From Geosiphon pyriformis (Eukaryota > Glomeromycota > Glomeromycetes > Archaeosporales > Geosiphonaceae): a DNA stretch of 64,000 nucleotides. The notes under the pieces were generated by a model. The model did not search any database. It saw nothing but the letters and a program-made list of their open reading frames with translations, and was not told the origin of the DNA. A program made the translations under genes and the position numbers. The DNA is taken from NCBI GenBank assembly GCA_016748015.1, contig JAAOMT010000515.1:227730-291729 (forward strand), written 5' to 3'. This document shows, piece after piece, positions 410-57,200 of the stretch. How positions within the stretch are numbered: the stretch's first letter is position 1; each line of letters begins with the position of its first letter.

Positions 410-2277
410 TTAATCTGTATATTTTTCTGAAGCTTTAATTTCAGAACTTTTGTATGCTTTTCTTTTTATCATTGGCATTTTCAATTTTTTATCCCGCGAA
501 AATCTTTTTTGGTTTATAATCGCCTTGAAAAATTTGATGAACTTGGGAGTTATTGATTGTCTCAATAGGAGTTTTGCTTTCGCAGCTGATATAAGAAATC
601 AAAAGGTTAGTAACTGCCTCATAAAAATAAATATGGGACGTAAAAAAATGTTTACATACCTTTATAGCTATTCTGGAAATCGATTACCACCCTGGTCACT
701 TGGAGGTGCCCAATCGCAAATTTCCATGGTTTTGGATGGTTCATCTTCCGAATATTGCCTCTTCCAGCATTATAAGTTCTCAGAATAGACTCATATGGTT
801 TCCAATTTATATCAATAGTAGTGTCGATGGTGATATAATGCAACATTGGCCTGCAGTTATCTAGAAAATCTCGAAAAGCTTCTGTTGACAATTCCCATTT
901 ATCGGAATTAAATTTAAAGTGTAGTCTTTTCAAGGATGTCGGTTTGACTTCGGCAAGCGTTGGCAAAAGGGTACGTAGGTCAAATGAATAGGAGACAATC
1001 ACTAACTCTTCTAAACGCCAAAAGTTTTTCAAATATCGGAGTGGTATAAAGACTTCAGAAGAAGAATGAACGAATAATGTCAGTTTTGAGATGTTGATAC
1101 AATGAAGTAAAACGTTTGGATAAAAATAACGGTGTTCATCCGCACGAAGCACATCGACACCCAGGGAAACCTTGCGTAACGTTGATTGTGCTTTTTTGAT
1201 TATTTTGGCTATTTCTCTAAATGGCAGCTCTTGAGTGTCTAGATGGGAGTTGAAATTTATGAATTCCAATTTTTCAAGAAAAGGAAATTGTGCTTTTGCT
1301 AATGGCCTGAGATGGGCACTGGTGATAGTAGAGCAATTTTGGAATTTTAAGGCAACTAAATTTTGACAAGCTGCCAATCCAAATAATGGGGGGCTATGAC
1401 GCATTAAACAATTGTCTTTTATCTTGACGTATTTTAAAGAATTTGATTGTGTCGCAAGAAGTTCAAAAAGGGGTCCCGGATTTTGATGACCAATCATTAT
1501 GAATTTTTCAAGAGCAATCTGACCAGTGAATAGTGTCCTGAAATTTTCGAAATTATCTACATTCTTCCCATGGCATTTTATTGCCCGAAGGTTTCGGCTG
1601 AGGGCTGCAAAAGTTTGGAGTAAATCTGCTTTGAAATCTTGATTGTTAAATTCTAATCTTGGCAGAAATTTAAGGGATTGTTGACCTAGGTTTAATATCG
1701 AGGTCAGTGGTGGTAACATCTCTTCTAAATATGAAAACTCTTTGTCCAGATTGAGAAACTCAAGACCTTTTGATCGAGTCATGAAAAGTGACAAGAGAGC
1801 TTGAAAAAGATGCGCGTTTTGCAATTCAAATTGGCGTTTAGCTATATAGTCCCCTTCAATTTCAGTTAGATTGCGCCACGCTTTAATGGATTCTCTTAAT
1901 TCAATCATATCCAGTTCTTTCAAAAAACTCGGATAATCGAACGATGCTGGCTCATCAAAATAACCAGAGTTGCCTGCGATTCCACATAGATCTTTTTGCT
2001 CATAAGTTAGAAAGGAAAAATATATTGGCACCAATTTTGGAGATGGTTGTACAAACCGATGGAACGGTCGTTTCCATAAAAATTCGATTGCATTCTGACA
2101 CCATACTCTATTGAGTAACACGCAAGAGTGAAGAGTTCTAATATCTTGGGAATCAATGTATCCCATAACAATTTTGATTGCTACATCAGGAAAGAAAATT
2201 TTACTTTTTTTCTTAGCATTAGATAATTTCTTGAAATTTTTATATTCTTTCCGCCATTTCTTAATTTTTGAAAACAT
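410..2277 (-). CDS. F-box/leucine-rich repeat-like protein, two exons
   Basis: Probable substrate adaptor of an SCF ubiquitin ligase. Exon 1 is 2277-660 and begins MFSKIKKWRKEYKNF. An F-box-like stretch at about residues 28-70 starts FFPDVAIKIVMGYI and ends in the WCQNAIEFLWKRPF motif common in expanded fungal F-box families. The rest is Leu-rich with irregular LRR-like pieces such as LKRLHFKFN. The open frame seems to stop at 652, but the last codons spell AAAG/GTATGT, a strong donor. On the minus strand a CTAAC branch site and a TATATCAG acceptor follow, giving an intron at 659-586 and a second exon at 585-410. That adds a Lys/Arg-rich tail of about 58 residues, 597 aa in total. No upstream partner is obvious. 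The F-box family assignment is good; the second exon is an inference from splice signals. Confidence 0.75.
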
Positions 2278-3632
2278 TTTGGGTGGTGGGAATTTACAAG
2301 GACATCGAACAGTGTCAATTCAGTCTGGCATAACTTTGTCGTGATAGTTATTCTATTTTTCGGTCCCACCTTGTAGATAACGAGAGAATAAACAATAAAT
2401 GTTTTACAAATTAATCATAAATATGCTCAAATTTGGCTGTTTCGGAAAATATTCGGTCATCAATGCGGCATCTACCGTTTATTTTTCAAAGTTTTAGTTG
2501 TAATCATTGTTTAAGTCGATCAGTAAATAATTGAAATGCTTGGCAGTTATTCAAACAATTTATCAAAAATGAGATCAAAACTTTCTAAAAATTTTTTCGC
2601 AACACATTCAAAATTTTCTTGGAGACCAATGTTCTTGGAGTGCATTTGGAAATCCTAACTATTAAAATAACATACAACTCTGACATAATATTTTCTTGGA
2701 CACATTTAGGCTGGATTAATCCGACCAATCGCTGAATATTTATTCCACAGCAATCAATAGTTGCATTAAAAGAATTTTTCGATAATTTTTAATCTGCAGG
2801 CAACCTACTAATTAACATTACGGAAAATCTCCCTTCAATGAGTAGTGCCAAATATTTGTGATGATTGGTAACAAAAGAATTTTTTTTCAAAAGCTGAATT
2901 TCACCGTAATATTTTAATTCTTTATGAGAAATCAAATTACATGTGTAAACTGGAGCGGAAATTGCGCAATGAAGATTTTGCGATGTCGAGTTATTATTGA
3001 TCGAATGAAACCTAAAACTTGCGACAAGGCAATTTCAGAATAAGTGTAGCAAAGCAATAACGTTTCCTTTGTTTTATGCCTAAAAACCTCTCGCATTTCG
3101 AATGATGTTTTTTAATATATTGCACATAATTTTTAAACATTGCCGAAATAAATAATTTTATAGCAACGGCTGGTGGAAGAAAATTTTTCTACGCAAAGCA
3201 AATCTCCGAAATCGTTCTCAATTTTTAATGGTCATCAAGAATTTCCTGATTGGAACCTACAAATATTTTTAAAATTACACGATAATCACTTTAATTAGAC
3301 CCTTTTTGACACAAAATGACTTATAAATGTAGTTTTCATCCTGGTTTTCTCTTCACCAATTATGATGAAGTTAAGTTGGTCTTTATAATAAAATCCAAGT
3401 AAAGAGAGTTTTGGCAAACTTTATACATTTTCTTGATATAGAATCTTTTTAGGGAAAAAATGTTTTTTTAACTTGCTATAAAACCAAAAATCCGATCTGA
3501 AGAAAATAATTCAATATTTTGATTCCTAAATTGTTGCACTTCTTGAAAAATCTTTACCTAAGGATGCTCTTTATAATCGGAGAAGCTAATGAGATCTTCA
3601 GATTCCTAGTTTTCGCCGCACTGTTTGAATGC
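2278..3632. other. Intergenic, no gene seen
   Basis: About 1.35 kb of AT-rich DNA between two minus-strand genes. It should hold the promoter of the F-box gene (right edge of that gene) and the 3' flank of the NTPase gene. No coding exon, repeat or RNA gene was recognised. Confidence 0.5.
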
Positions 3633-14000: not shown

Positions 14001-14341
14001 AAAGCAAGATAATATGGAACTTCACAATATTTCGGAAATCATCTCGGAAATTCTTTCCGTCAACCGAATTGAGCCCGCCATTTTCTGTCCCCTCAAAATA
14101 TGAATCGAGAATTTCTCATCTGGTGTGGTGAAAATTTTTTCTCTTGAATTTTTGTAATCACGCTATAAAGTGGAATTTTAATTGCGTAACATAATCAATT
14201 TTGAGTTATACTTTAAGGAATAACTTGTGAAACCATGTCAAATACGCGCATTATCAATCTTTCTAGAATTTTTGACAATAAAAGGAGTTCTCATTGTTGT
14301 TTGAAAAGTAAATTGCATTTATCCTTTTAACCATAGAGAAC
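11061..14341. other. Long AT-rich intergenic region
   Basis: About 3.3 kb without a recognisable gene. It contains a short direct repeat (gcaaccgatatgag, twice, about 12640-12665), a G-run near 13410-13425, homopolymer tracts, and the promoter of the multicopper oxidase at its right end. Undetected short exons cannot be excluded. Confidence 0.4.
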
Positions 14342-16525
14342 ATGATTTTTTTTTACAAAAATATACGCGTAAAAATCAGTTTTCTATGCTTCCTACTGAC
14401 GCTTGTATCAGCTAATAACATTATATTGCCAATCTCCAAACCTCAATCAACACTTTCCCCAAAGACACACAAATTTATTTTTAATGTTTCTAAAAAACTA
14501 CTTTCTCCAGATGGTTTCGAACGAAAAGTTTGGACAGTCAATGGTCAATATCCTGGGCCTCCAATTCATGTAATGAAACATGATCGTATCAAAGTAACAG
14601 TTGTCAATAACCTTGAAAACGAGGAAACTGCCATTCATTGGCATGGTTTTCTTCAAAAAGGTACACCTTGGTACGATGGTGCTCCTGGGACAACACAGTG
14701 TCCAATTGCTATCGGAAAAAATTTCACATATAACATCAAAGCTAGAGATTCCGGAACATTTTGGTGGTAGGTATTCGACTATATAATTAGGATTTCAATC
14801 TTATTAAATTATTCAATTTTACTCTTGTTCATGTAATTTTTTGAAATTAGGCATTCACATTTCATTGGTCAATATGTTGATGGCCTGGCCGGCGCATTAA
14901 TTGTTCATGATCCAAAAGATCCTTACCTTCCTTTATATGACGAAGAATTTATTGTATATCTTGCTGACTGGTATCACCAAGAGTCATCTGAATTATTACA
15001 TGCATTAAAAACACCAGTCTCAGAAGGAGGGGAAGAAGTAGGCAACAACATTTTGTTATTCAAATGTTAAATTTTTTGTCAAAGAGAATTCAGCTTCTAA
15101 ATTTGGACATTATACATTCTTAAGCCTGTAGCCCAAAGCCTTCTTATAAATGGTAAAAACCGATTTAATTGCACGTATGCTCCCAAAGAATCGAAATGTA
15201 ACTCAAATGTCAGCCTAGCCAAGTTTCGATTTGAGAAAGATAAACGATACCGTATACGAATAATTAATTCAAGGTAATAATTTCATCTGTTTACTTTTAA
15301 TATTTTTTCTGATTTCACGAAGAATAAAACCAATTTGAAAAATTTGATCTATCAGTGCGGATCATACGTTTTACTACTCAATCGATAACCACCATCTATT
15401 AGTAATTGAAGCCGATTCACAACTTGTAAAACTCCAAAAAGTACACAGCCTTAGGATTGAGCCTGGACAACGTTATTCCGCGATAGTTAATGCCGATCAA
15501 GCAGTTGACAGCTTTTGGATGCGTGCTACAGTTGATGCTGATGAAGACGCTTCGAAGATTGGGCTCAAGCCCGAGGTCAAGGCTGTTGTACAATACGCTG
15601 AGGCACCGAACAAAAATCCACAATCCAAGTCATGGAAAAAAGCTGTCAAAAAGGTCAAAACCCTTCAACAAAAACATCTGAGACCGTATCGACATCATTC
15701 TGTCCCCGGACCTGTCGGTCGAGAACTCATTTTCAAAATTGATTTCAGAGAAGATGAAGAGACCAATGTTTTAAATGGATTCATTAACAATTCGACAGGA
15801 CACATCGATATAAAAAATCCAATCTTGAACAAAGTCTTACATGGTTATTCAGTTGATGCAATAACCCAGACAACCACAAATGTTTTCGTTTTTGATAAAT
15901 TTGGAGAGGTCATTCAGATCGTGATTCAAAGTAAGGGAAATCCCCGAATTTGTTTTAAAATCGAACCGATGACTTTCTTCACAATATTTTAACCTATATT
16001 TTTTACATGAAAACAGATCAAATGGATGAAGACCACCCATTTCATTTAGTAAGTTGCGATACCAGAATATTCGGGGAAATCGTTTTTTTTATTAATATAA
16101 TATTTTTTCGACCTTTCACTCTATTTAGCACGGGCATAACTTCTACTGGCTGGGCTCAGGTCCAAACCCTTATAATCCCGCAAATTCTACCTTGAACTTA
16201 AAAAATCCTCCCTTACGTGACACTTCGAATGTGCCAGCATCTGGCTGGACTGTAATTCGATTCGTAGCGAATAATCCTGGCGCTTGGTTTCTTCATTGCC
16301 GTAAGTATGAATGTTTGATTTAAGTAAATTCACATTGTGGTATTAGGATTTATTGAATATTTTTTTCTCTTAGATATTGAATGGCATGTTCAACAGGGTA
16401 TGTTAGTTCAGTTCCTGGAGCTACCATTGCAATTGAAAGAATATCGACAGCCGGAAGCCGTGACAAATTTGTGTGACCCATCGTTTGACGATCTTGCATC
16501 GAAACAATTGAATGCTACATCTTAA
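14342..16525 (+). CDS. Secreted multicopper oxidase, seven exons
   Basis: Laccase/ferroxidase/ascorbate-oxidase superfamily enzyme that couples one-electron oxidation of a substrate to reduction of O2 to water. Exons: 14342-14766, 14851-15037, 15125-15273, 15356-15930, 16017-16048, 16129-16300, 16374-16525 (563 aa). A hydrophobic signal peptide spans about residues 8-24. All four copper signatures are visible: HWHG (about residue 99), WWHSH (about 142, across the first intron), HPFHLHGH (across the fifth intron) and [12 protein letters not shown] at the C-terminal end. The residue ten after the type 1 Cys is Met, as in ascorbate oxidase and low-potential enzymes. Between domains 2 and 3 there is a Lys-rich insertion (about residues 340-365, near [10 protein letters not shown]). 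The substrate (phenols, Fe(II) or ascorbate) cannot be fixed from the sequence. Confidence 0.93.
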
Positions 16526-17165: not shown

Positions 17166-18727
17166 ATGTATTTTTCTAGTAAGGTTATAACTATTTTGCC
17201 GGCACCTATAAAGTTTTCCTGCAGTGTTAGCGTATTAATTATAATCCTGATAATCGTCAACTTGAACCAAAGTAATCTAAAATTAGAGGAAAGCTTTGAA
17301 GAATTCTTAGGGTTTGATCTCAAAAATGCATTGTTATCTGAAGAAAATTTCGAAAATTCAACATTTCACCACGAAATAAATATTCCAAAAATGATGAAAA
17401 GAGCAATTCCCACAAGAAAGCCAAGGTATCCCCCAAAGGAACAAGTATTTGAAACGAGCACTTTTGAATATTTTAACAGAATGGCTCGCTATGCTAACTT
17501 GGCATATTGCTCTCAAAAAAATAATGCGGGAAAAGGCGTCAAAAATGCTATAGGTAAAGTTTTTTGCAAAAGAATAAAAAAATCTCTCGAATAAAATCCA
17601 CTTGTTTTCACGTAACTTTTTTTTTTTACTTGGTCTTTTATAGCGCATGTTTTTGTTGATATGCCAACAAGAGATGTGATAATATATTTTGGAGGTCCTC
17701 GCCTCTCGATAAAACAATTGGAAGCAAGAAAACCCACCATGGTCTCATTTAAGTCTATTTATTCGGAGATTCCTATTCCAATGGTGGACGCGAAATGGCT
17801 GAAAGACGTAGAACAAATTTATACAATCTTAGTTGCGAAACTACGGGCAATTCTGGAACTTCTTGAGACAAATCGAAGAAATTATAGGCTTCCAACAGAC
17901 AATTTTAAAATTAGATTCACAGGCCATGGAGTTGGAGGAGGTAGGAAGTTATGAAATTAATTTATTTTTCGATTTAGAATTTGATGGAATGAATTGAAAC
18001 AAAAATTTTTGACCATCTTTTTGTTAAAATGCATAACGGTATTGACATTAAACATGATAATTCTATTAACCTATATTTTGGTTTATTAATTTCAAGTATA
18101 CGCAATGCTTGCAGCTTTACTTCTGAGACTGGAAGTAATTTCAGAGAGACCTATAAATCAGATTTGGCCTTATGTAATTATCGATGTCACTACATTCGGT
18201 CAACCCCGTTTCGGAGATTTTGGATTTGCAACACTCTTAAATCGAGTTTTCTCTGATAGTGTTAATCGTATCACTCACACAAATGATTTTGCTCCTCAGC
18301 TTCCTGTAAAGGGTATTGGTGAAATTTTTCTTCAGCAGCAGGATACAGAATATTGGATTTCTCGGCCCTTGTGTGATTGCCCAGATGAAAGAATGGCCCC
18401 ACCAATTGATGACCAAGGCTATTCTGCTCTTTTCCGATGCTATGGGTTTCATCGGAAAAAGGATTGGACTAAACAATATGTTTGGGCTGGTGAGAATAAT
18501 GTAAGTTTTTTGACATTATCTTTTTATATGATTTGATTGGATGATATTTTTTGTTTTAATTTTTTGTTTTGATAATAATAAATTTGAAGGAATGCAATTT
18601 GGGGCAACATTATGCAAAACCAGAAAGCGAAAATTCTCACAACGGTCCTTATTTTGGTATTACAATGGGGGTTTGTACTACAGGTATGGATGGAGCTTCT
18701 CAAGGTAACTTTGACAGTGGATTTTAA
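17166..18727 (+). CDS. Class 3 lipase paralogue A, nucleophile Ser replaced by Gly
   Basis: Alpha/beta-hydrolase of the fungal triacylglycerol lipase (class 3) family. Exons: 17166-17553, 17644-17940, 18097-18500, 18590-18727 (408 aa). The start is the ATG at 17166; the frame is open six bases upstream, but only from a TTG. An N-terminal hydrophobic segment (about residues 16-34) suggests secretion or a signal anchor. The nucleophile elbow reads TGHGVGG, where active members have GHSxGG. The second fold signature TFGQPRFGD is present, the acid is in HTNDFAPQLP, and the His is in SHNGPYFG. A Cys pair CDCPD follows. Ser loss predicts a non-catalytic or binding role. Intron phases match paralogues B and C exactly. 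Confidence 0.85.
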
Positions 18728-20458
18728 AATCAGTCTTTGAAACAATAAGATGGAAAAGATATAGGAATATTAGATTTTTTGAGCTATCATTGTTATGAAA
18801 GTATATATGTTTTTTCAAATAGTTGTGGTTATTGAAATATTTGATATTTATCGAATCACCAATGAGGCTTTTGTTAGCTCTATAGTATACGAATGGCTTG
18901 AGTCGAACTCTGATAGATAGATAATGTTATCTATTAATAGCCATCGCCTGAATCATCATATGTTCAAGTGGTGCCTCCCCAAACAGTTAATTTGATTTTT
19001 GAAGAAAAAAACATATGATATACTTTCAAATTGTAAACAATCATTTCAAGAAATATTTCACATGCACCATTAATATTTTTATCTATAAAAAGACCATATT
19101 GCTTACATTTAAGATATTAGTTTAGTTGTCAATCCATTCACATCAATTGCATGTTTAGCATTAAACTTCAATTTTTGTTATAACTACAAGTAAGTAAATA
19201 TCTATAAAGCAACAAATTTTGTATACAAATTTATATTCAATATATATTAATAATAAAGTTATGAATATTTGAATTTAAAGGGGAAATTCTAATTTTTGCA
19301 TCTGACAAATAAAGATGGTATTAATTGCCAAAATATCTTCAGTCAACTCTTGGGCTGCAGTAATAGATGTTAATGCATCATCATCATCATCATCATCTAA
19401 GTCAACTGTGATGATTTTTGTACCATTGAAAAAAAAAATGTGTTCTAAAAGGTTGTATGCAAATGAAAGAATTATCATGGTAAACAACCACAACTTATTT
19501 AAAAGATATTAATGTGATATATAGAATGAATAAGGTTCAAAAATCAAAAATAATTCTGTGACCATTCTTCAATGTGAGAATTCCAATAGGGTTTTAAGGC
19601 TGAATCTCTTGAAATTGATTCCACTGGCAGCATCAGTGATGATTTGGTAAGAAGAATAGAGCTTTTAGAGATGTTTTTTCGGCCATTTGAGATCCTATCG
19701 TTGTTTTGAGCTCAAAGCTCGAATTTAAATATAGCCACAGGATCTAAAGGTTTGAGTGGGAGTTTTAGCAGTTGTGAAGACATTTTTTAGATTATAAAGA
19801 CGAACTCCACCCAAATTTCACATAGCACTTAATTTTCCTTGGACGAAGGGTTCTGGAAGAGACTCCAATCTGTTTGGATGCTTGATGAGCAGAAAAGAGG
19901 ATTACTTTTTAAAATGTTTTAACATATTTTTTTAAACATTATTTGTATCTTTTTCAAGTTTGCTAGAAAGCTTTGAGTTTCGTTTATAAGTAGAGACAAT
20001 TGATATTCATGAGCAGAAAGATGTAAGCAAGGACAAGAAAATTATAGGATCGCAAATAATATTTATAAGTTGGAAAAAGCAATAAAATAAACGAAACAGG
20101 AAAAAAAAATCATTGATCGATGCTTGCATAACTATTATTTAATAGGCAATGGTCTTTGATATTTTATTAATAAAAGGTTTAACCAGAAGCATTAAGCTTG
20201 TGAATGAAATCTACATTCCTCATTAAACATAATAAAGAATGAAATCGACTAAAACTTTGATAACCAAATTTCCAATGAAAGAAAATTCTTTTCATTTTTG
20301 TGAATACACATTTTTCACCAATTAATTGGTCACCAAAATCTCGGGTCACGAGTAAATTTTTCCTCATAAATGTAAAGTTAATCCCAACCATTTGGATCCT
20401 TTATTATCTCATCTTTTGAATCAAAGTTTAATATTTCAAAAAGTCCTACACTATCAAT
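18728..20458. other. Intergenic between lipase paralogues A and B
   Basis: AT-rich spacer with a (CAT)n run at about 19376-19396 and no supported gene. The promoter of paralogue B lies at its right end. Confidence 0.4.
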
Positions 20459-21704
20459 ATGATATTTTATTTAAAAATTCTTATCATTTTAAGCTTTTTC
20501 ATATATTCATTAAAAACATCATTAGTGAAAAACCACATTTCAGAATCTTCGAATAGTACTAAAATGATAAATGATCCTTTACTAGTCAAATATAATTTCG
20601 AGGTTGAACCATTGCTATTCTTAAATAATAACTCACAGAATTTTGAATCTCAAAAAAAATCTAATTTGAAACGTAACTACGAACCAAAACAAAAATTTAG
20701 AGTTCCAGCAAATGAATTAGACCAACTAAAAACTTTTGCTTGGTTTGGCATGCGAGCTTATTGTCTAAACGAAGAGTATCGTATTACAGAGGGAATTTTC
20801 GGTACCAAATATTTTCAACGTAATATTTTGTGTAATGACATTTTATTCACCTTTACTTTTATTGGGTCTCTTTTTAAAAGCTGGTGTTGCAGTTCAAGGA
20901 AATGAAATTATTTTAATTATTAGAGGAGAACCATTAAACTCCCCTCAATTTTGGATAGAAAACCCCAAGAAACTTATTGCCTATCCCAGAAGTAATTATG
21001 GGGCCAAAGTTGACGAATACTTTTGGAATAGGTATTTAGAGACTGAACAAAAATTGGGAACAATAATTTTAGACAGATTGAGAGGCAGAAGCAATATTCA
21101 GAAAATTGTTGCAATTGGACATGGCTCTGGTGGTGGTAATTCATCGACCTACCTTTTTACTTTTTCCATCCTTCGAAAAGAATATTCTCATTAAATTTTT
21201 CTTTTCAAGTTTACGCGACATTTCAACTACTTGACTTGATTTATATGCAAGAATTGAAAAGAATGAAATTCAAAGTTGTTACCTTCGGATCACCTCGTAT
21301 CGGAAACAAGGAATTTGTGCAACAAGTGAATGATCTACTGGATAAAATTCCTGTACTTCGGTTCACCAATATTGACGATTACGTTCCAAGGTTGCCTGGA
21401 GCTACTTATCCTAATTATTATGTTCACCATATGAGTGAGTATTGGATTAAAGGTGCTTGTGATTGTAATTCACTGGATGTTTACTTGTGTATCGGAAGAG
21501 TATCCATGACAACATTTGTTCAAGAGAGTGAGGTAAATTTTTCAAATTAGATCTGTTTTTATTTAGAATAAAGTTCAATTTAAAAGAAATTTTTTCTAGG
21601 TATGTGTCAACCAGTTTGAAACCCATAGTTTTAATGCACATAACGGACCGTATTTAGGTGTGATGATGGGTTCTTGTTCAAATGAACCGGCACCGACATC
21701 GTAA
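20459..21704 (+). CDS. Class 3 lipase paralogue B, nucleophile Ser replaced by Gly
   Basis: Same family and gene structure as the preceding lipase-like gene. Exons: 20459-20801, 20881-21135, 21210-21532, 21600-21704 (341 aa). A signal peptide spans about residues 4-20 (LKILIILSFFIYSL). The elbow reads AIGHGSGG, with Gly at the nucleophile position and a Ser one residue later. TFGSPRIGN, the acid in TNIDDYVPRLPG and the His in NAHNGPYLG are all kept, as is the CDC motif. The mature protein is shorter than paralogue A because the linker between the signal peptide and the domain is reduced. Whether the shifted Ser could act is doubtful: the elbow geometry normally needs it at the third position of GxSxG. 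Function is inferred as secreted, probably non-hydrolytic. Confidence 0.83.
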
Positions 21705-22364
21705 AATCGTAGGAATTTGATAAAGGGTGATTGGTTATTTTTTGAAAAATAAAACTGACAAAAAATTTGGGAGATTTCCTATTTTCCAATCATATAGACT
21801 TTTAACTCCTTTTGAGTGAAAACTTGAAAGAAATAAGTATATAGTTTTTCCTTAAAAAAATTTCATTTCAACACCTCAACTTTCAAAATACTTGATTTTC
21901 TTTTTAAAATATGAAATTCCTCCAAGCGATATATTTATAAAATATTTAATCTTTCAGGTATGACTTCAGAAATTTAATATTTAAGTACATTTAAATGAAA
22001 ACCAGATTTAAATTAATTTTTTATATATTTGAATAGATTTTTTTTTTACAAAATAAATAAATTAACCAAAATTTTATCTCAAACGTCTTTTAACGTATAC
22101 TTTTTAAAAACTAATAAGTATTTTGGGTTATATTACTTTTCTTTTTTCCCAATTTAGGGCTAATATTTAGCTTTTTTGATATATTGCCTTCCCTCATTTA
22201 TAATTGCACACAAGAGATTTAAAATTTTTATCGAAAACATTGAAATATGTTTATCATAGATAAGGAGAAAGTTATTTATAGATCAACATCAAATCATGAG
22301 TCAAAGGAGATAACGTTCTTGCGAAGGGAATTCTTGGTCATTACTTTGATTAAGATCTCAGGTT

Positions 22365-22936
22365 TCAAAAGAAATTGACGCATGCATTAATATTATTAAT
22401 TATACTATTTTTGAGCTGGGATCTCTGATTTTGAATGCTTTTTTACAAAATTAAATTATGCAGTATCTGGATTGAGAAAAAGTTCTTGAATCGTTATCAA
22501 ACAAAATTTTGTTATTGAAAATCTAAATTTTGAAAGTTCGTTTTGAAAATTCAAAAAAGACGACTGGCACACTAAACATTTGAGATTGAAAACTTTGATA
22601 TCATGATCGCTTAGTGATAAATAAATGAACGTTGAAACATNNNNNNNNNNNNNNNNNNNNTCAAAAGAAATTGACGCATGCATTAATATTATTAATTATA
22701 CTATTTTTGAGCTGGGATCTCTGATTTTGAATGCTTTTTTACAAAATTAAATTATGGAGTATCTGGATTGAGAAAAAGTTCTTGAATCGTTATCAAACAA
22801 AATTTTGTTATTGAAAATCTAAATTTTGAAAGTTCGTTTTGAAAATTCAAAAAAGACGACTGGCACACTAAACATTTGAGATTGAAAACTTTGATATCAT
22901 GATCGCTTAGTGATAAATAAATGAACGTTGAAACAT
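22365..22936. repeat. 276-base direct repeat flanking a 20-N gap
   Basis: Bases 22365-22640 recur at 22661-22936 at a constant offset of 296. The one difference noticed is C at 22461 and G at 22757. The 20 Ns at 22641-22660 sit exactly between the copies. The simplest reading is a scaffold join in which two contig ends overlap and were not merged, or an unresolved haplotype or tandem repeat. Confidence 0.95.
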
Positions 22937-23456
22937 CTTAATAAAACAAAGATTACAGATTTTCTAGCTAATTCAAAATTCAAATCCATGGACATTTGTA
23001 ACGATTGATAATAACCCTAGTTAAAAGCATAAATAACAACAACAACAACAACAACAACAAAAAATGAAGATCTTTTTGTATAGAATTTCTTAATTTTTTA
23101 ATTTTGATGGTATTGCGATTCCAACAATCAATCACAGATTTTGAAAGTCAAAACTGATATTAGGCTGATTGTAATCAACGAAAAATATTCCGGCATAATA
23201 GATGTATAATATTGATTACAATTTCCCAAGACTTCATAAGTGGATTGCAATTTTGACATTAGGAAGTTTGAATTATATCACCTGAAAGATGAATATCATA
23301 GTTGTTCATCAGAGCGTTCTTCTATACCGCTTTACTTGCTTATTGATGAAATAGATAAGAATTTATCAATTATTCTTTTTATTATAGTTATTATTATTGA
23401 GATCTTGATACCCACCCCCGAATTTTAATTAATAAAAATCATTATCGTATTTTTTA

Positions 23457-23553
23457 AGCACGTGCTGTTTTAGCAGCACTGGGTCTAGAATTGAAACTCT
23501 AATCTTCAGGATGATGAAGATTAGAGTAAAATCACTTCAACCGTGATTTTACT
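23457..23553. repeat. Cluster of three adjacent stem-loops
   Basis: A 10-base palindrome, AGCACGTGCT (23457-23466), overlaps a GTGCTG/CAGCAC stem (23462-23467 with 23474-23479). Next is a perfect 13-bp stem, 23496-23508 with 23515-23527, loop 6. Last is a perfect 11-bp stem, 23525-23535 with 23543-23553, loop 7. The last two share three bases (AGT, 23525-23527), so they would compete. No coding sequence overlaps. It may be a small foldback element, a structured RNA or a 3'-end structure between the convergent lipase genes. Confidence 0.75.
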
Positions 23554-24016
23554 AGAATATCGGCATCATAATATTGTCAGTGATTTTTAAGGTTTAATAT
23601 AACAATCAAACTCCAATAAAAAATAAATTTATTTCTAAACAGGTTCTATTATAAAGAAGTTTTGAATAAAATTTTGTTATTTAAAAATTCAGTCTCAGTA
23701 GGTTTGATCCAAGGGTTGACGTTCTTTATTTAACAATTCAAAATTGTGGAAACTTGTCTCAAAAAATCTGAACATGATTATTCACCAACAAATGTAGCTG
23801 CTTTTTCCTTGCACTGAAGGAGTTTATATTTAGTTCGGTAGGTTATGATTTACAAATAGTCCAAATGAGGAATCCAAATTTTGTAATATAATTATTCGAT
23901 TCAAAAGCTATTCCATTTACATTTTGCCCTTGACTTTAATAAACTAAACCTTGAAGCTATCCAACCATCTAATTTAGAATCGAAAGCATTAAAGGGTATT
24001 AATTTGAGTAAAAGAG

Positions 24017-25590
24017 TCATATGGGCCTGGAGGACTTTAATTTCAAGGAAAATGGTTTGGGATGGGATGGACAGACACCCATGGTTATTCCAAAATAAGG
24101 TACATTGCTCGTGTAATTATAATTTGGATAACTATTCATCCCAACATTACAATACTGTTTTGATATCATCATTACAGGAAAAAGGATTAGAACTTCAAAA
24201 ATGTTTTAGTAGCAAAAAAATATCAAAATTTAATTCAAAATTTACCCAGTTTTCTCCTACAGTTGAGCCGCTTCTAATTCCGGAGCATTCATACACTTGG
24301 GTAAGATTCGTAAAATCTTCTCGATTTCTATCAGTAGCTGAATCGATACAATCACAGTTCTCTATATGATTTATCCATATTTCCCGCTCGTGGTGTATAA
24401 AATAGTCCGATGTAAGAAATAGTCGAGGAAGCCAATCATTTGAAATAGTTACTCGATACAGAAAATCATTGGCAAAAGCCATATTTGTTAAAGCCGCAAA
24501 ATTTTCATCGCCAATTCTAGGCGCACCAAATGTTATCACATTGATGGGGGATATTGTTATATAAACATTTGGAGATATTTGTTTAAGAGGGCTTGATTTT
24601 TGAAATAAAAGTGCAGCAAGAACTGCGTAAGCTAAAACAATTTAGAAAAACTTTTAGTTAATAAGAAGCTCTCTCTTTTTTAACTCCTATTTAAACAAGT
24701 AAATTATGTAACACATACCACCACCAATTCTATGACCAGTGAAAAAATATTGTGGGATTTCAAATGGGTTCCTCGTGAAAAACTTGGTAATTCTTTGGAT
24801 TCTTGAAAAAATAGCTGGCATCATTTTCTCAACATTTTCCAACCAAACAGAGTCTACTTTTGCTTTCATTGGTATTGGGGATTGATGTTCAAATGGAGAA
24901 AATTTTACTTTTCTGGTTTCCCATTGACTAAATGAATATTTCCTATCACGAAAATAGATAATAATCTGTAACTTAAGATCGGTTGAACGGGTGACCATAA
25001 AATCAGCTAAATCAAAATACGGATTCGTAATAAATTTTTGTGACAGAAACCAATTAAATGGATTGTTTAAACAAAGAATAGTAAGACATACCCTTCATGG
25101 ATTTGGTATTAAGAACTGAACCAAATCGATTCTCTCTGCGACAATAACCAAAATTTGCGTATGCAGCCATCTGTTGAAGAAAATGTAAAAGTTCGATATT
25201 CTTTACAAGCTTTGGCTTTAGAGAGCTATAAGCATTTTTCGAAGGTTGCTTCTGATGATTTATAGGTTTAAGTTGTGTATTTGAAAAAAATAATTGTTTT
25301 CGCTGAATTTCACTTGGTCGCTTATGATAAATATTTTTTCGGATATGTTTAGAATTTTTAAGTTGATGTATTTGTGATAATATATCATCTGGGGCAAAGG
25401 ATTTGCTCCCATTTTTTTTAAAGCCGAGAACGGTAGTTAGATTTTCAGCTTGTCTGATAATTTCTTTCTGAGAGAGATATTTTAACCCAAAATTCGGCGT
25501 TAACAGAATTTGAGATAATTCCCAGCATAATATAAGATATATAGAGCAATAAAATATACTCTTTGATATTGATAGGTATTTGTGTTGCAT
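24017..25590 (-). CDS. Class 3 lipase paralogue C, Ser and His of the triad replaced
   Basis: Third member of the local lipase-like group, on the opposite strand. Exons: 25590-25092, 25006-24719, 24631-24246, 24154-24017 (436 aa). Intron positions and phases equal those of the two plus-strand paralogues. The N-terminus has a hydrophobic segment (about residues 10-28) and a long basic linker. The nucleophile elbow reads FTGHRIGG (Arg for Ser), TFGAPRIGD is kept, and the acid is in SNDWLPRL. The C-terminal exon has YTSNVPYFG where the paralogues have SHNGPYFG and NAHNGPYLG, so the catalytic His is also gone. CDC is kept. The fold seems intact while catalysis is not possible by the usual triad. 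It could be a lipid- or ligand-binding secreted pseudoenzyme, or a decaying gene that still keeps its frame. Confidence 0.82.
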
Positions 25591-54588: not shown

Positions 54589-55155
54589 TTATCCAAAAAT
54601 GGAAGGCGTTTGAGGTCTCCTAAATTCTTTTGAAGAAATTTGGAGTTCAAATTCAAATTCAAACTCAGGCTCAGGCTCAGGCTCAGGCTCAGCTTCAACC
54701 TCTAGTGATGAGCCTATATTATTTGTTTCAGATAGAGATGTTTGTGATTCACTTGACTGAGATTGAACACCCATCATCAATAAAGTACCACCGATTTCTG
54801 GACGGTTGTATTCAATAAATTTATTCTCTGAAGGTGGTACATAATTTATATATTTTAGATCTTGAGATCTACGAGCCTTATTAATCGAAATTTGTATTTG
54901 TCGAGCAATTTCAGCATACTTTGATTTGATATAATCTGGCTGCCTTTGCCAATTATATGAGGCTAACTGTGATATCTTAGTTTGTTGGAGATTGGGATAA
55001 TTTTCTTTGACGTGGTTCATAAAACATTTTCTAAAAATCAAGAATTTGTTTGCTCCTCGATTTTTAACTTTTCCATTTGAATTGTACAAAGTAAAGTCTT
55101 CTGCTTTAATTTTTGGAGGAAATGGTAATTGGATATCAATTTTTGAGGGATTCAT
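54589..55155 (-). CDS. HMG-box protein of the MATA_HMG type
   Basis: Intronless gene for a 188-aa DNA-bending protein. The HMG box spans about residues 32-98: GANKFLIFRKCFMNHVKENY, then QQTKISQLASYNWQRQPDYI and KSKYAEIARQIQISINKARR. It has the MATA_HMG pattern (N.F..FR, a conserved Trp in helix 2, Y..A). The C-terminus carries an acidic EPEPEPE tract encoded by a GGCTCA hexanucleotide run (54664-54692), then EFEFEFE. The frame is open 65 codons further up through a poly-Lys stretch that is just a T-tract read in reverse. The start chosen is Met at 55155 (MNPSKIDIQL), where the folded part begins. MATA_HMG genes are strongly expanded in arbuscular mycorrhizal fungi; this box is divergent and its target is unknown. 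Confidence 0.85.
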   Translation of the reverse strand: MNPSKIDIQLPFPPKIKAEDFTLYNSNGKVKNRGANKFLIFRKCFMNHVKENYPNLQQTKISQLASYNWQRQPDYIKSKYAEIARQIQISINKARRSQDLKYINYVPPSENKFIEYNRPEIGGTLLMMGVQSQSSESQTSLSETNNIGSSLEVEAEPEPEPEPEFEFEFELQISSKEFRRPQTPSIFG

Positions 55156-57200
55156 AGCTTTAAGTGTTTCTTGTTTTTTTTTTTTTTTTTTTTTTTTTAC
55201 TAAAAAAGCTAAAGTTCTATTTGAAACCTCAAGATTTTTTGAACTTTCAATTGCTGGTCTTTTTATAAATTTCGCGATTTTCAACCAGCGGTATAAAATA
55301 TTAAGATTAACAAAATCAATTTTAGAAATTTCAAAAACTATAATTAGCAAAGGAGAAAAATTTTTATTATTATTATCTATGTATTTAATTCTAATTTTTT
55401 TTGTTAATAATTGAATATAATAATTCCAAGTACGTCATTTCAAAAAAATTTGTAAGAACGGAAAACCGGGTTATCCGTAGGGGAAAGATTTATCCATATT
55501 TTTTCAGAATTTAAACTTTGAATTTCTGTATAAAATTTATAAACAAAAAAAAATTTCATTCTATCTTTTCTTAAAAATAGAAATTTTCTTTTTCTTAAAA
55601 TTACCAAACTGTTTAAAAGTAAATTCGAATAAAGCTTGATAATTTCAAATACCTGCATTATATAATTTTGACAAAAAATTTTGGATAAAATTAATGTCTT
55701 TATATCCTGATAAAGTTATAAATATTAATCTCCAATTAAAATTATCTTTTACAAATAACTAAGAATAACATAGTTCAAGCAAAAATATTCTCGCACAAAA
55801 TTTCGATTAAATAAATACGCCCAGATAACAACAAAACAAAAATTTCCTTTTCAAGAATTAAATTTCAATATTTTTAATAAAGAAAACTTTATTTTACAGA
55901 AAAATCTTGTAGTTCTTTGATCACAAGCATACAATGAAAATTTTTTTCGGAATCTTTTTACATGCATGGTCAATATTAGGAAAGAGATTCGGAAAAAATT
56001 GGATCCCCATTGTATTATATGGTCATAATTAAAAAATTTTCATTCCTCCTAGACTTTTATTTTTGATAATGTTAATAATCATAATTTATATGGAAAGAAT
56101 TTATTAAATTGATTATTTATTTTTTTAATAGCTTTAAATAAAAAGTTTGAGACCAATATTTGAATTTTTCAATAATAGTTATCAATAGAATTGCGATTTT
56201 TTGAAATAATAATTATCAAAAATTCTTAAATAAAAACTTAATTTTCTATATTAAAAAATACTATTTCTTTTCCGAGATTCATAATATTTTTACACGTTAT
56301 TTTCATTAAAAATAATTTTTAACATATAAAAATAACGTTATCAATCAATAATATAATTTAAAAAATCTTACTCCATATTTATCCTCAAATAAAGATTTTA
56401 CACTAAAGTTTTATGTTAATATAAAAATATGGATAATGAGATGAAATTCCATAAAAAGCTTGTTATACTTAAGCAACCAAAACTAATACCAACGACCATA
56501 GACTTTAAATCTTGCTCTTTCTCATCTTTCAAGAATGACTGCATAGAAAAATTATTTAATATTTGAATTTCATTCGCTTAACTCTATATCGATTGTGCAT
56601 GCGTAAAAATCTTAATAATTATTCTTTAATCTCAAAGTTTTTTATTTCAAACTTTGTAAAAATTTTCTAAAAATGATAAACAGAAAAAATATTGATCAAC
56701 TATTTTGCTTTCCAAATAAAGAAATTGAAAATATTCGGGCCGTATCTTTATAGTTACTCAAAATCCGTATATCTTTCAAATCTCCATATCTTTTGTCTGG
56801 GCTATAAAATTGATCTGATCTGATATCTTGGCACAAATTTTTTTTATCAAAAGGGTTTACCACACAATTGACTTTTATTCTTTTAAAAATATCAAAATTA
56901 AAATGGTTTTTTGAAACAATTTTTTCCATTGTTACTCCAAAATCAAGATCTTTTGTTGGTAGCTAAATATAACAAAAAGCTCTCGGACTAGATATGGTTT
57001 TGATCCCAAAATATATTAAATTGTTTTACATTTCTAAGTTGGTAATATTGTTCATCCCCATACTTTATTGCTACTGTTCGATAGATTTTAAGAGTCAAGA
57101 TAAATTGTTCTTCTCCTCCTTATATACTGAAATTTATTGTTCAAGTCTATCAGATCGAACGCAGAGTAGTTGCTCCACGCGAACAAAGCAATTATCAGCA
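55156..57200. other. AT-rich intergenic region
   Basis: No supported gene. A 20-plus T tract lies at about 55175-55198, upstream of the HMG gene. A minus-strand open stretch at 56696-56929 has a plausible ATG but no recognised domain and was not called. 55900-56450 is extremely A+T-rich. Confidence 0.4.

What the first reader, a model, noticed from the sequence alone, without database searches (positions are those of the whole stretch)
17166..25590. Cluster of three class 3 lipase paralogues, all without the nucleophilic serine
The GHSxGG elbow reads GHGVGG, GHGSGG and GHRIGG in the three genes. The rest of the fold signature (TFGxPRxG, the acidic residue, CDC) and the leader sequences persist. 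All three share the same three intron positions and phases (phase 1, 1 and 0) and keep intact frames of 408, 341 and 436 codons. Independent retention of open frames with three different substitutions argues for selection on a non-hydrolytic role, such as secreted lipid binding or an inhibitor or decoy of host lipases. The residues are seen directly; the role is inference.
Basis: partly seen in the sequence, partly recalled or inferred. Interest (0 to 1): 0.8.

Follow-up and report, generated by a model that had tools for sequence, protein, structure and literature searches.

The report
Giant family of dead secreted lipases
Three neighbouring fungal genes that look like fat-digesting enzymes but lack the key catalytic residue turn out to belong to a family of several hundred such genes in one genome, almost certainly that of Geosiphon, the fungus that houses cyanobacteria inside its cells, so the fungus appears to have turned a digestive enzyme into a large set of secreted proteins that probably bind rather than cut.

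Summary
Three Lipase_3 genes with three shared introns (phases 1, 1, 0) read GHGVGG, GHGSGG and GHRIGG where fungal lipases read GHSxGG; the third has also lost the triad His. But the trio is not special and the losses are not independent. The genome, matched to Geosiphon pyriformis by its largest scaffold, has 252 exact hits to the elbow-plus-intron motif (none for the reversed control): Gly in 68%, Ser 13%, Ala 9%, others 10%. On a tree of 82 genes all Ser-less genes fall in one supported clade beside canonical GHSLGG lipases. The window genes come from three deep subclades; Gly is probably ancestral and Arg derived from it. The clade has also lost the oxyanion Ser/Thr, keeps Asp in 98% and His in about 70%, gained a Cys set, and carries hydrophobic leaders. 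Codon models reject neutrality (omega 0.22-0.33, against 0.10 in active lipases), so these are maintained genes. Best reading: a huge radiation of secreted pseudolipases, probably ligand-binding. The role is inferred; expression and presence in other fungi could not be tested.

The parts
17166..17553 (+). gene A exon 1: hydrophobic leader, pro-region with KR site, ARYANLAYC
   Evidence: leader max hydropathy 3.81
17644..17940 (+). gene A exon 2, ends in the elbow
17928..17930 (+). gene A nucleophile position: GGA (Gly) in GHGVGG (17922-17939)
   Evidence: aligned to Thermomyces lipase GHSLGG
18097..18500 (+). gene A exon 3: TFGQPRFG, Asp of HTND (18285-18287), CDC
18590..18727 (+). gene A exon 4: ECN, triad His of SHNGPYFG (18638-18640)
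20459..20819 (+). gene B exon 1: hydrophobic leader, KR site, MRAYC
20881..21135 (+). gene B exon 2; acceptor may instead be 12 nt downstream
21123..21125 (+). gene B nucleophile position: GGC (Gly) in GHGSGG (21117-21134)
   Evidence: aligned to Rhizomucor lipase
21210..21532 (+). gene B exon 3: TFGSPRIG, DDYVPRLP, CDC
21600..21704 (+). gene B exon 4: triad His of AHNGPYLG (21639-21641)
25092..25590 (-). gene C exon 1: hydrophobic leader, KR site, ANFGYC
24719..25006 (-). gene C exon 2, ends in the elbow
24729..24731 (-). gene C nucleophile position: AGA (Arg) in GHRIGG (24720-24737)
24246..24631 (-). gene C exon 3: TFGAPRIG, SNDWLPRL, CDC
24017..24154 (-). gene C exon 4: triad His replaced by Ser (24107-24109) in TSNVPYFG

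Best explanation
The three genes belong to a very large clade of secreted class 3 (Rhizomucor/Thermomyces-type) lipase-fold proteins in Geosiphon pyriformis that stopped being hydrolases when their ancestors lost both the nucleophile (Ser to Gly) and the oxyanion Ser/Thr. The fold, disulphides, pocket floor and processing signals were kept, and the family then radiated to several hundred copies. Shown: the residues, one supported clade holding all sampled Ser-less genes, counts, purifying selection, hydrophobic leaders, gained cysteines. Inferred: no esterase activity (a Gly cannot act as nucleophile; a Gly at the strained elbow position should if anything stabilise the fold), and a function in binding a lipid, acyl or surface ligand outside the cell, plausibly at the interface with Nostoc or other microbes.
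For: 252 elbow motifs: 172 Gly, 32 Ser, 23 Ala. Clade support 99/94 with 67 Ser-less and 7 Ser-bearing rows; 7 state changes against 13.2 in shuffled labels, 0 of 500 as low. Oxyanion Ser/Thr in 6 of 6 canonical but 4 of 67 big-clade genes, p about 1e-6. Asp kept in 98%, His in 69%; GH..GG, TFG.PR.G and the listed Cys columns at or above 88%. The elbow region is among the least variable parts. Omega 0.22 and 0.33 in two Ser-less subclades, 2dlnL 198 and 218 against omega = 1. Hydrophobic leaders in 41 of 51 readable first exons, KR/RR in 39.
Against: Ligand binding is not shown. One close pair has omega 1.05 (CI 0.59-1.98) and another 0.64 (CI 0.39-1.18). Seven nested genes have Ser, so either some regained it or losses were multiple. 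No structure, expression or assay. No other fungal genome could be searched.
Confidence: 0.6

Rival explanations
1. Diversifying recognition or effector proteins: the Ser-less lipase fold is a scaffold whose variable loops recognise many partners (microbes, Nostoc surface, other hyphae), and copy number itself is the point; lipid need not be bound.
For: Several hundred divergent copies, often clustered; loops outside the core vary most (exon 2 columns 51-135 about 0.42 differences per site in close pairs against 0.17-0.18 in elbow and TFG regions); higher omega than active lipases.
Against: No omega clearly above 1; strong conservation of the pocket floor and triad Asp is not needed by a pure scaffold, although it could be structural.
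Confidence: 0.2
2. Inhibitors or decoys: the dead proteins pair with, or shield, the few active GHSLGG lipases of the same genome, or titrate lipase inhibitors.
For: A small set of canonical GHSLGG/FRGT genes coexists in the genome (L004, L005, L007-L009, L021, L022). Decoy and regulator roles are known for other pseudoenzymes (PMC6549527).
Against: Hundreds of dead copies for a handful of active ones; fungal class 3 lipases are not known to need a partner (general knowledge).
Confidence: 0.1
3. Hydrolysis by another route: Asp-His with a water or a neighbouring Ser (as in GHGSGG) still gives some esterase or transferase activity.
For: Asp kept in 98% and His in about 70% of Ser-less genes.
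Against: His is lost in about 30% and the oxyanion Ser/Thr in nearly all; apart from the Thr of TFG and of R.T, shared with active lipases or structural, no Ser/Thr column near the site is conserved, and the conserved Cys look like disulphide partners.
Confidence: 0.06
4. Decaying gene family: relics of a lipase expansion under relaxed selection.
For: Omega is two to three times that of active lipases; one pair near 1.
Against: Open exons in all three window genes; omega clearly below 1 on pooled pairs (0.56, CI 0.41-0.69) and in subclades; near-invariant columns across divergent copies.
Confidence: 0.04

Closest known systems
Fungal class 3 lipases, Thermomyces lanuginosus and Rhizomucor miehei type (PDB 1dt3/1tib, 4tgl; Pfam PF01764)
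   Same: Sequence similarity across elbow, TFGxPR, ND and EYW; leader and pro-region; N- and C-terminal cysteines (AYC and the final Cys); Asp and often His
   Different: No nucleophile Ser, oxyanion Ser/Thr changed, KVH to VD, extra CDC / YxC / ECN cysteines, WxxR in the lid region
EDS1, PAD4 and SAG101 of plants
   Same: Class 3 lipase-like fold used without needed hydrolysis (general knowledge); EDS1 is gene C's best PDB match by sequence (4e-7)
   Different: EDS1 keeps Ser in its elbow (GHSSGG), is intracellular with an EP domain and acts in immunity signalling (general knowledge); here leaders suggest secretion and no further domain was found
Expanded pseudoenzyme families such as inactive GH28 pectinases of beetles (PMC6549527)
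   Same: Duplicated digestive enzymes whose inactive copies stay under purifying selection and matter for fitness
   Different: Different fold and host; here the inactive copies far outnumber the active ones
Ser-less GHNYGG class 3 lipase-like genes of Bacillus and Paenibacillus (L108, L110, L112 and others)
   Same: Class 3 lipase fold with the nucleophile replaced
   Different: Asn, not Gly; bacterial, no introns; not part of this radiation as far as tested

Membership tests
Pfam Lipase_3 (fold family) | Score above curated cut-off | tested here: met
   58.8, 65.9, 62.0 bits against 22
Active class 3 lipase (EC 3.1.1.3) | Nucleophile Ser in GxSxG | tested here: not met
   Gly, Gly, Arg in A, B, C
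Active class 3 lipase (EC 3.1.1.3) | Oxyanion Ser/Thr after RG | tested here: not met
   A FGGP, B IRGE, C FRDR; 4 of 67 in the clade against 6 of 6 canonical
Active class 3 lipase (EC 3.1.1.3) | Triad Asp | tested here: met
   D in A, B and C; 98% of Ser-less genes
Active class 3 lipase (EC 3.1.1.3) | Triad His | tested here: inconclusive
   Kept in A and B, Ser in C
Active class 3 lipase (EC 3.1.1.3) | Ester hydrolysis | not testable with these tools
   Needs an assay
Pseudoenzyme | Essential catalytic residue lost while the gene is under purifying selection | tested here: met
   for subclades (B's subclade included); not measured for A or C singly
EDS1/PAD4/SAG101 family | C-terminal EP domain | tested here: not met
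   Lipase_3 only in the Pfam scan of whole proteins of 347-436 aa
Secreted proteins | N-terminal signal peptide | tested here: inconclusive
   Hydrophobicity only; signal peptide and signal anchor cannot be told apart; start Met was chosen to favour leaders

The most novel reading that the evidence does not exclude
An early glomeromycotan that hosts intracellular cyanobacteria has turned a secreted lipase into one of its largest gene families of non-catalytic, individually diverged binding proteins, possibly a receptor or lipid-capture repertoire for the endosymbiosis.
Probability: 0.3. Interest if true: 0.85.

Novelty: new variant of a known kind. Interest (0 to 1): 0.62.

Why it matters
Pseudoenzymes usually appear as one or a few copies beside active relatives. 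Here the inactive form dominates by about seven to one in the motif sample and runs to hundreds of genes, in the only fungus known to keep cyanobacteria inside its cells and in a lineage (Glomeromycotina) described as lacking its own cytosolic fatty acid synthesis (general knowledge). If the proteins bind lipids or symbiont surfaces they are direct, testable candidates for how this endosymbiosis is run. It also warns that lipase counts from Pfam domains in such genomes can be mostly counts of inactive proteins.

Tried and rejected
No structure was predicted: spliced proteins are not read letter for letter from the window DNA, so I did not submit them. Chance as an explanation was rejected by the reversed-pattern control (0 hits). 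RNA editing to restore Ser was rejected by reasoning: GGN to a Ser codon needs G to A or more, which A-to-I or C-to-U editing cannot give. Alternative splicing to restore Ser looks unlikely since the codon lies 10-12 nt inside exon 2; transcripts were not available. Horizontal transfer from bacteria or viruses: relatives found by exon 3 motifs are distant, 26-48% identity, and have Ser or Asn, never Gly, at the elbow. Literature searches for a described Ser-less class 3 lipase family in fungi found none in the open library, but the Geosiphon genome paper itself is not held.

Full report
What is there. The three genes were modelled by hand and all exons join in frame: A (+) 17166-18727, B (+) 20459-21704, C (-) 25590-24017. 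Intron phases are 1, 1, 0 in each. All are Lipase_3 by Pfam. PDB alignments place the Gly of A on the catalytic Ser column of Thermomyces lipase, the Gly of B on that of Rhizomucor lipase, and the Arg of C on the Ser column of EDS1's GHSSGG elbow, EDS1 being C's best PDB match by sequence. C has lost the triad His as well.

Where it is. The window lies in a 124.7 Mb assembly of 406 contigs. Its contig C370 is 2,733,912 bases long; the published Geosiphon pyriformis assembly has a largest scaffold of 2733.91 kb, 129 Mb and 29.25% G+C (PMC9453076). The window's base composition (0.19-0.36 G+C per 2 kb) and its neighbours (Sel1 repeats and an HMG box) fit a glomeromycotan. I take this as an identification from one exact length match; it was not confirmed with rRNA.

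How large the family is. A DNA pattern for the elbow followed by the phase 1 intron donor, GGNCAYNNNNTNGGNGGNGGTR, has 252 exact hits and none when read backwards. Comparing the two lists on the contigs up to C279 gives a rough estimate of about 470 loci. At the nucleophile position Gly stands in 172, Ser in 32 (36 WSN hits less two Cys and two Arg), Ala in 23, others in 25. This sample is biased towards otherwise intact elbows. In contrast, of 49 bacterial and viral relatives fetched by a motif outside the elbow, 47 could be read: 35 have Ser, 12 Asn and none Gly (the script's single 'I' is a misread of L105, which has GHSLGG).

History. 82 genes could be read, one without a readable elbow. 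With the elbow residue masked, a maximum-likelihood tree rooted on Rhizomucor lipase places 75 genes in one clade (99/94), of which 67 lack Ser; seven canonical GHSLGG genes lie outside. Seven Ser-bearing genes are nested inside. The tree cannot tell regain from repeated loss, but the Ser state changes only 7 times against 13.2 for shuffled labels. The earliest branches inside the clade are Ser-less. A, B and C fall in three distant subclades; C is sister to a GHGIGG gene (100/90).

What was kept and lost. Canonical genes have FRGT or FRGS at the oxyanion position (6 of 6 readable); in the clade only 4 of 67 readable have Ser or Thr. Asp is kept in 98%, His in 69% with Asn in 25%. The difference in His between Ser and Ser-less genes is not significant with these numbers (p 0.16). 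GH..GG, TFG.PR.G, R.T..ND, E.W and the cysteines are close to invariant, and the clade has its own cysteines, a WxxR in the lid stretch and a KVH-to-VD change. The elbow region is among the least variable parts. Small residues (Gly, Ser, Ala) fill nine in ten elbow positions, which fits a constraint on backbone geometry; that the nucleophile position is strained and suits Gly is general knowledge about this fold.

Selection. Six close pairs have omega of 0.40-1.05 by the Nei-Gojobori method, pooled 0.56 (CI 0.41-0.69); four pairs exclude 1 and two do not. Codon models give 0.22 for the GHGSGG subclade that includes B, 0.33 for a GHGI/V subclade, and 0.10 for canonical genes, with 2dlnL of 198 and 218 for the first two against omega = 1 at fixed kappa and topology. 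Deep branches are saturated in synonymous change, so values are rough. The genes are maintained, but less strictly than the active lipases.

Export. In 51 genes with a recognisable first exon 41 have a strongly hydrophobic stretch near the start and 39 a KR or RR further on. The start codon was picked to maximise hydrophobicity, so the share is optimistic. A, B and C all have both.

Function. A Gly at the nucleophile position with no oxyanion Ser/Thr makes ester hydrolysis very unlikely. What remains is an apparently secreted, disulphide-bonded fold with a conserved pocket floor in hundreds of versions. I judge ligand binding most likely (overall statement 0.6, of which the lipid part is the weakest), then recognition scaffold, then decoy or inhibitor. 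None is shown. Nothing here links the genes to Nostoc beyond the organism.

Known or not. No open paper found describes this. One counts all lipases in Glomeromycotina at a mean of 189 per genome (PMC12574304) without noting catalytic residues in the passages read. The Geosiphon genome paper is not in the library and may mention the expansion.

Noticed in passing
L108, L110, L112, L113, L116, L117, L121, L127, L130, L132, L137, L139: Bacillus, Paenibacillus and relatives carry a class 3 lipase-like family with GHNYGG (Asn for the nucleophile Ser), beside relatives with GHSLGG: a separate Ser-less lineage in bacteria.
   Followed up: no
window 22366-22936: A 20-base run of N at 22641-22660 is flanked on both sides by a near-identical stretch of about 270 bases: probably unmerged contig ends, an assembly artefact rather than a real tandem repeat.
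   Followed up: no
window 14312-16520, + strand: Multicopper oxidase (laccase-type) gene with Cu-oxidase_3 and Cu-oxidase domains directly upstream of gene A.
   Followed up: partly
window 54592-55434, - strand: HMG-box protein resembling the MATA_HMG genes expanded in Glomeromycotina (HMG_box hit; the MATA comparison is from memory).
   Followed up: no
window 655-2319, - strand: 555-codon open frame with the F-box/LRR-like look of glomeromycotan expansions (from memory), yet no Pfam family at 0.001.
   Followed up: no
L018, L025, L028: Family subclade in which the elbow His is replaced too (GDGLGG, GVGLGG, GEGIGG), branching near the base of the Ser-less clade.
   Followed up: partly
L006, L020: Different class 3 lipases with GHSLGAALG and no intron at the elbow, a separate pair of paralogues with an intact Ser.
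   Followed up: no
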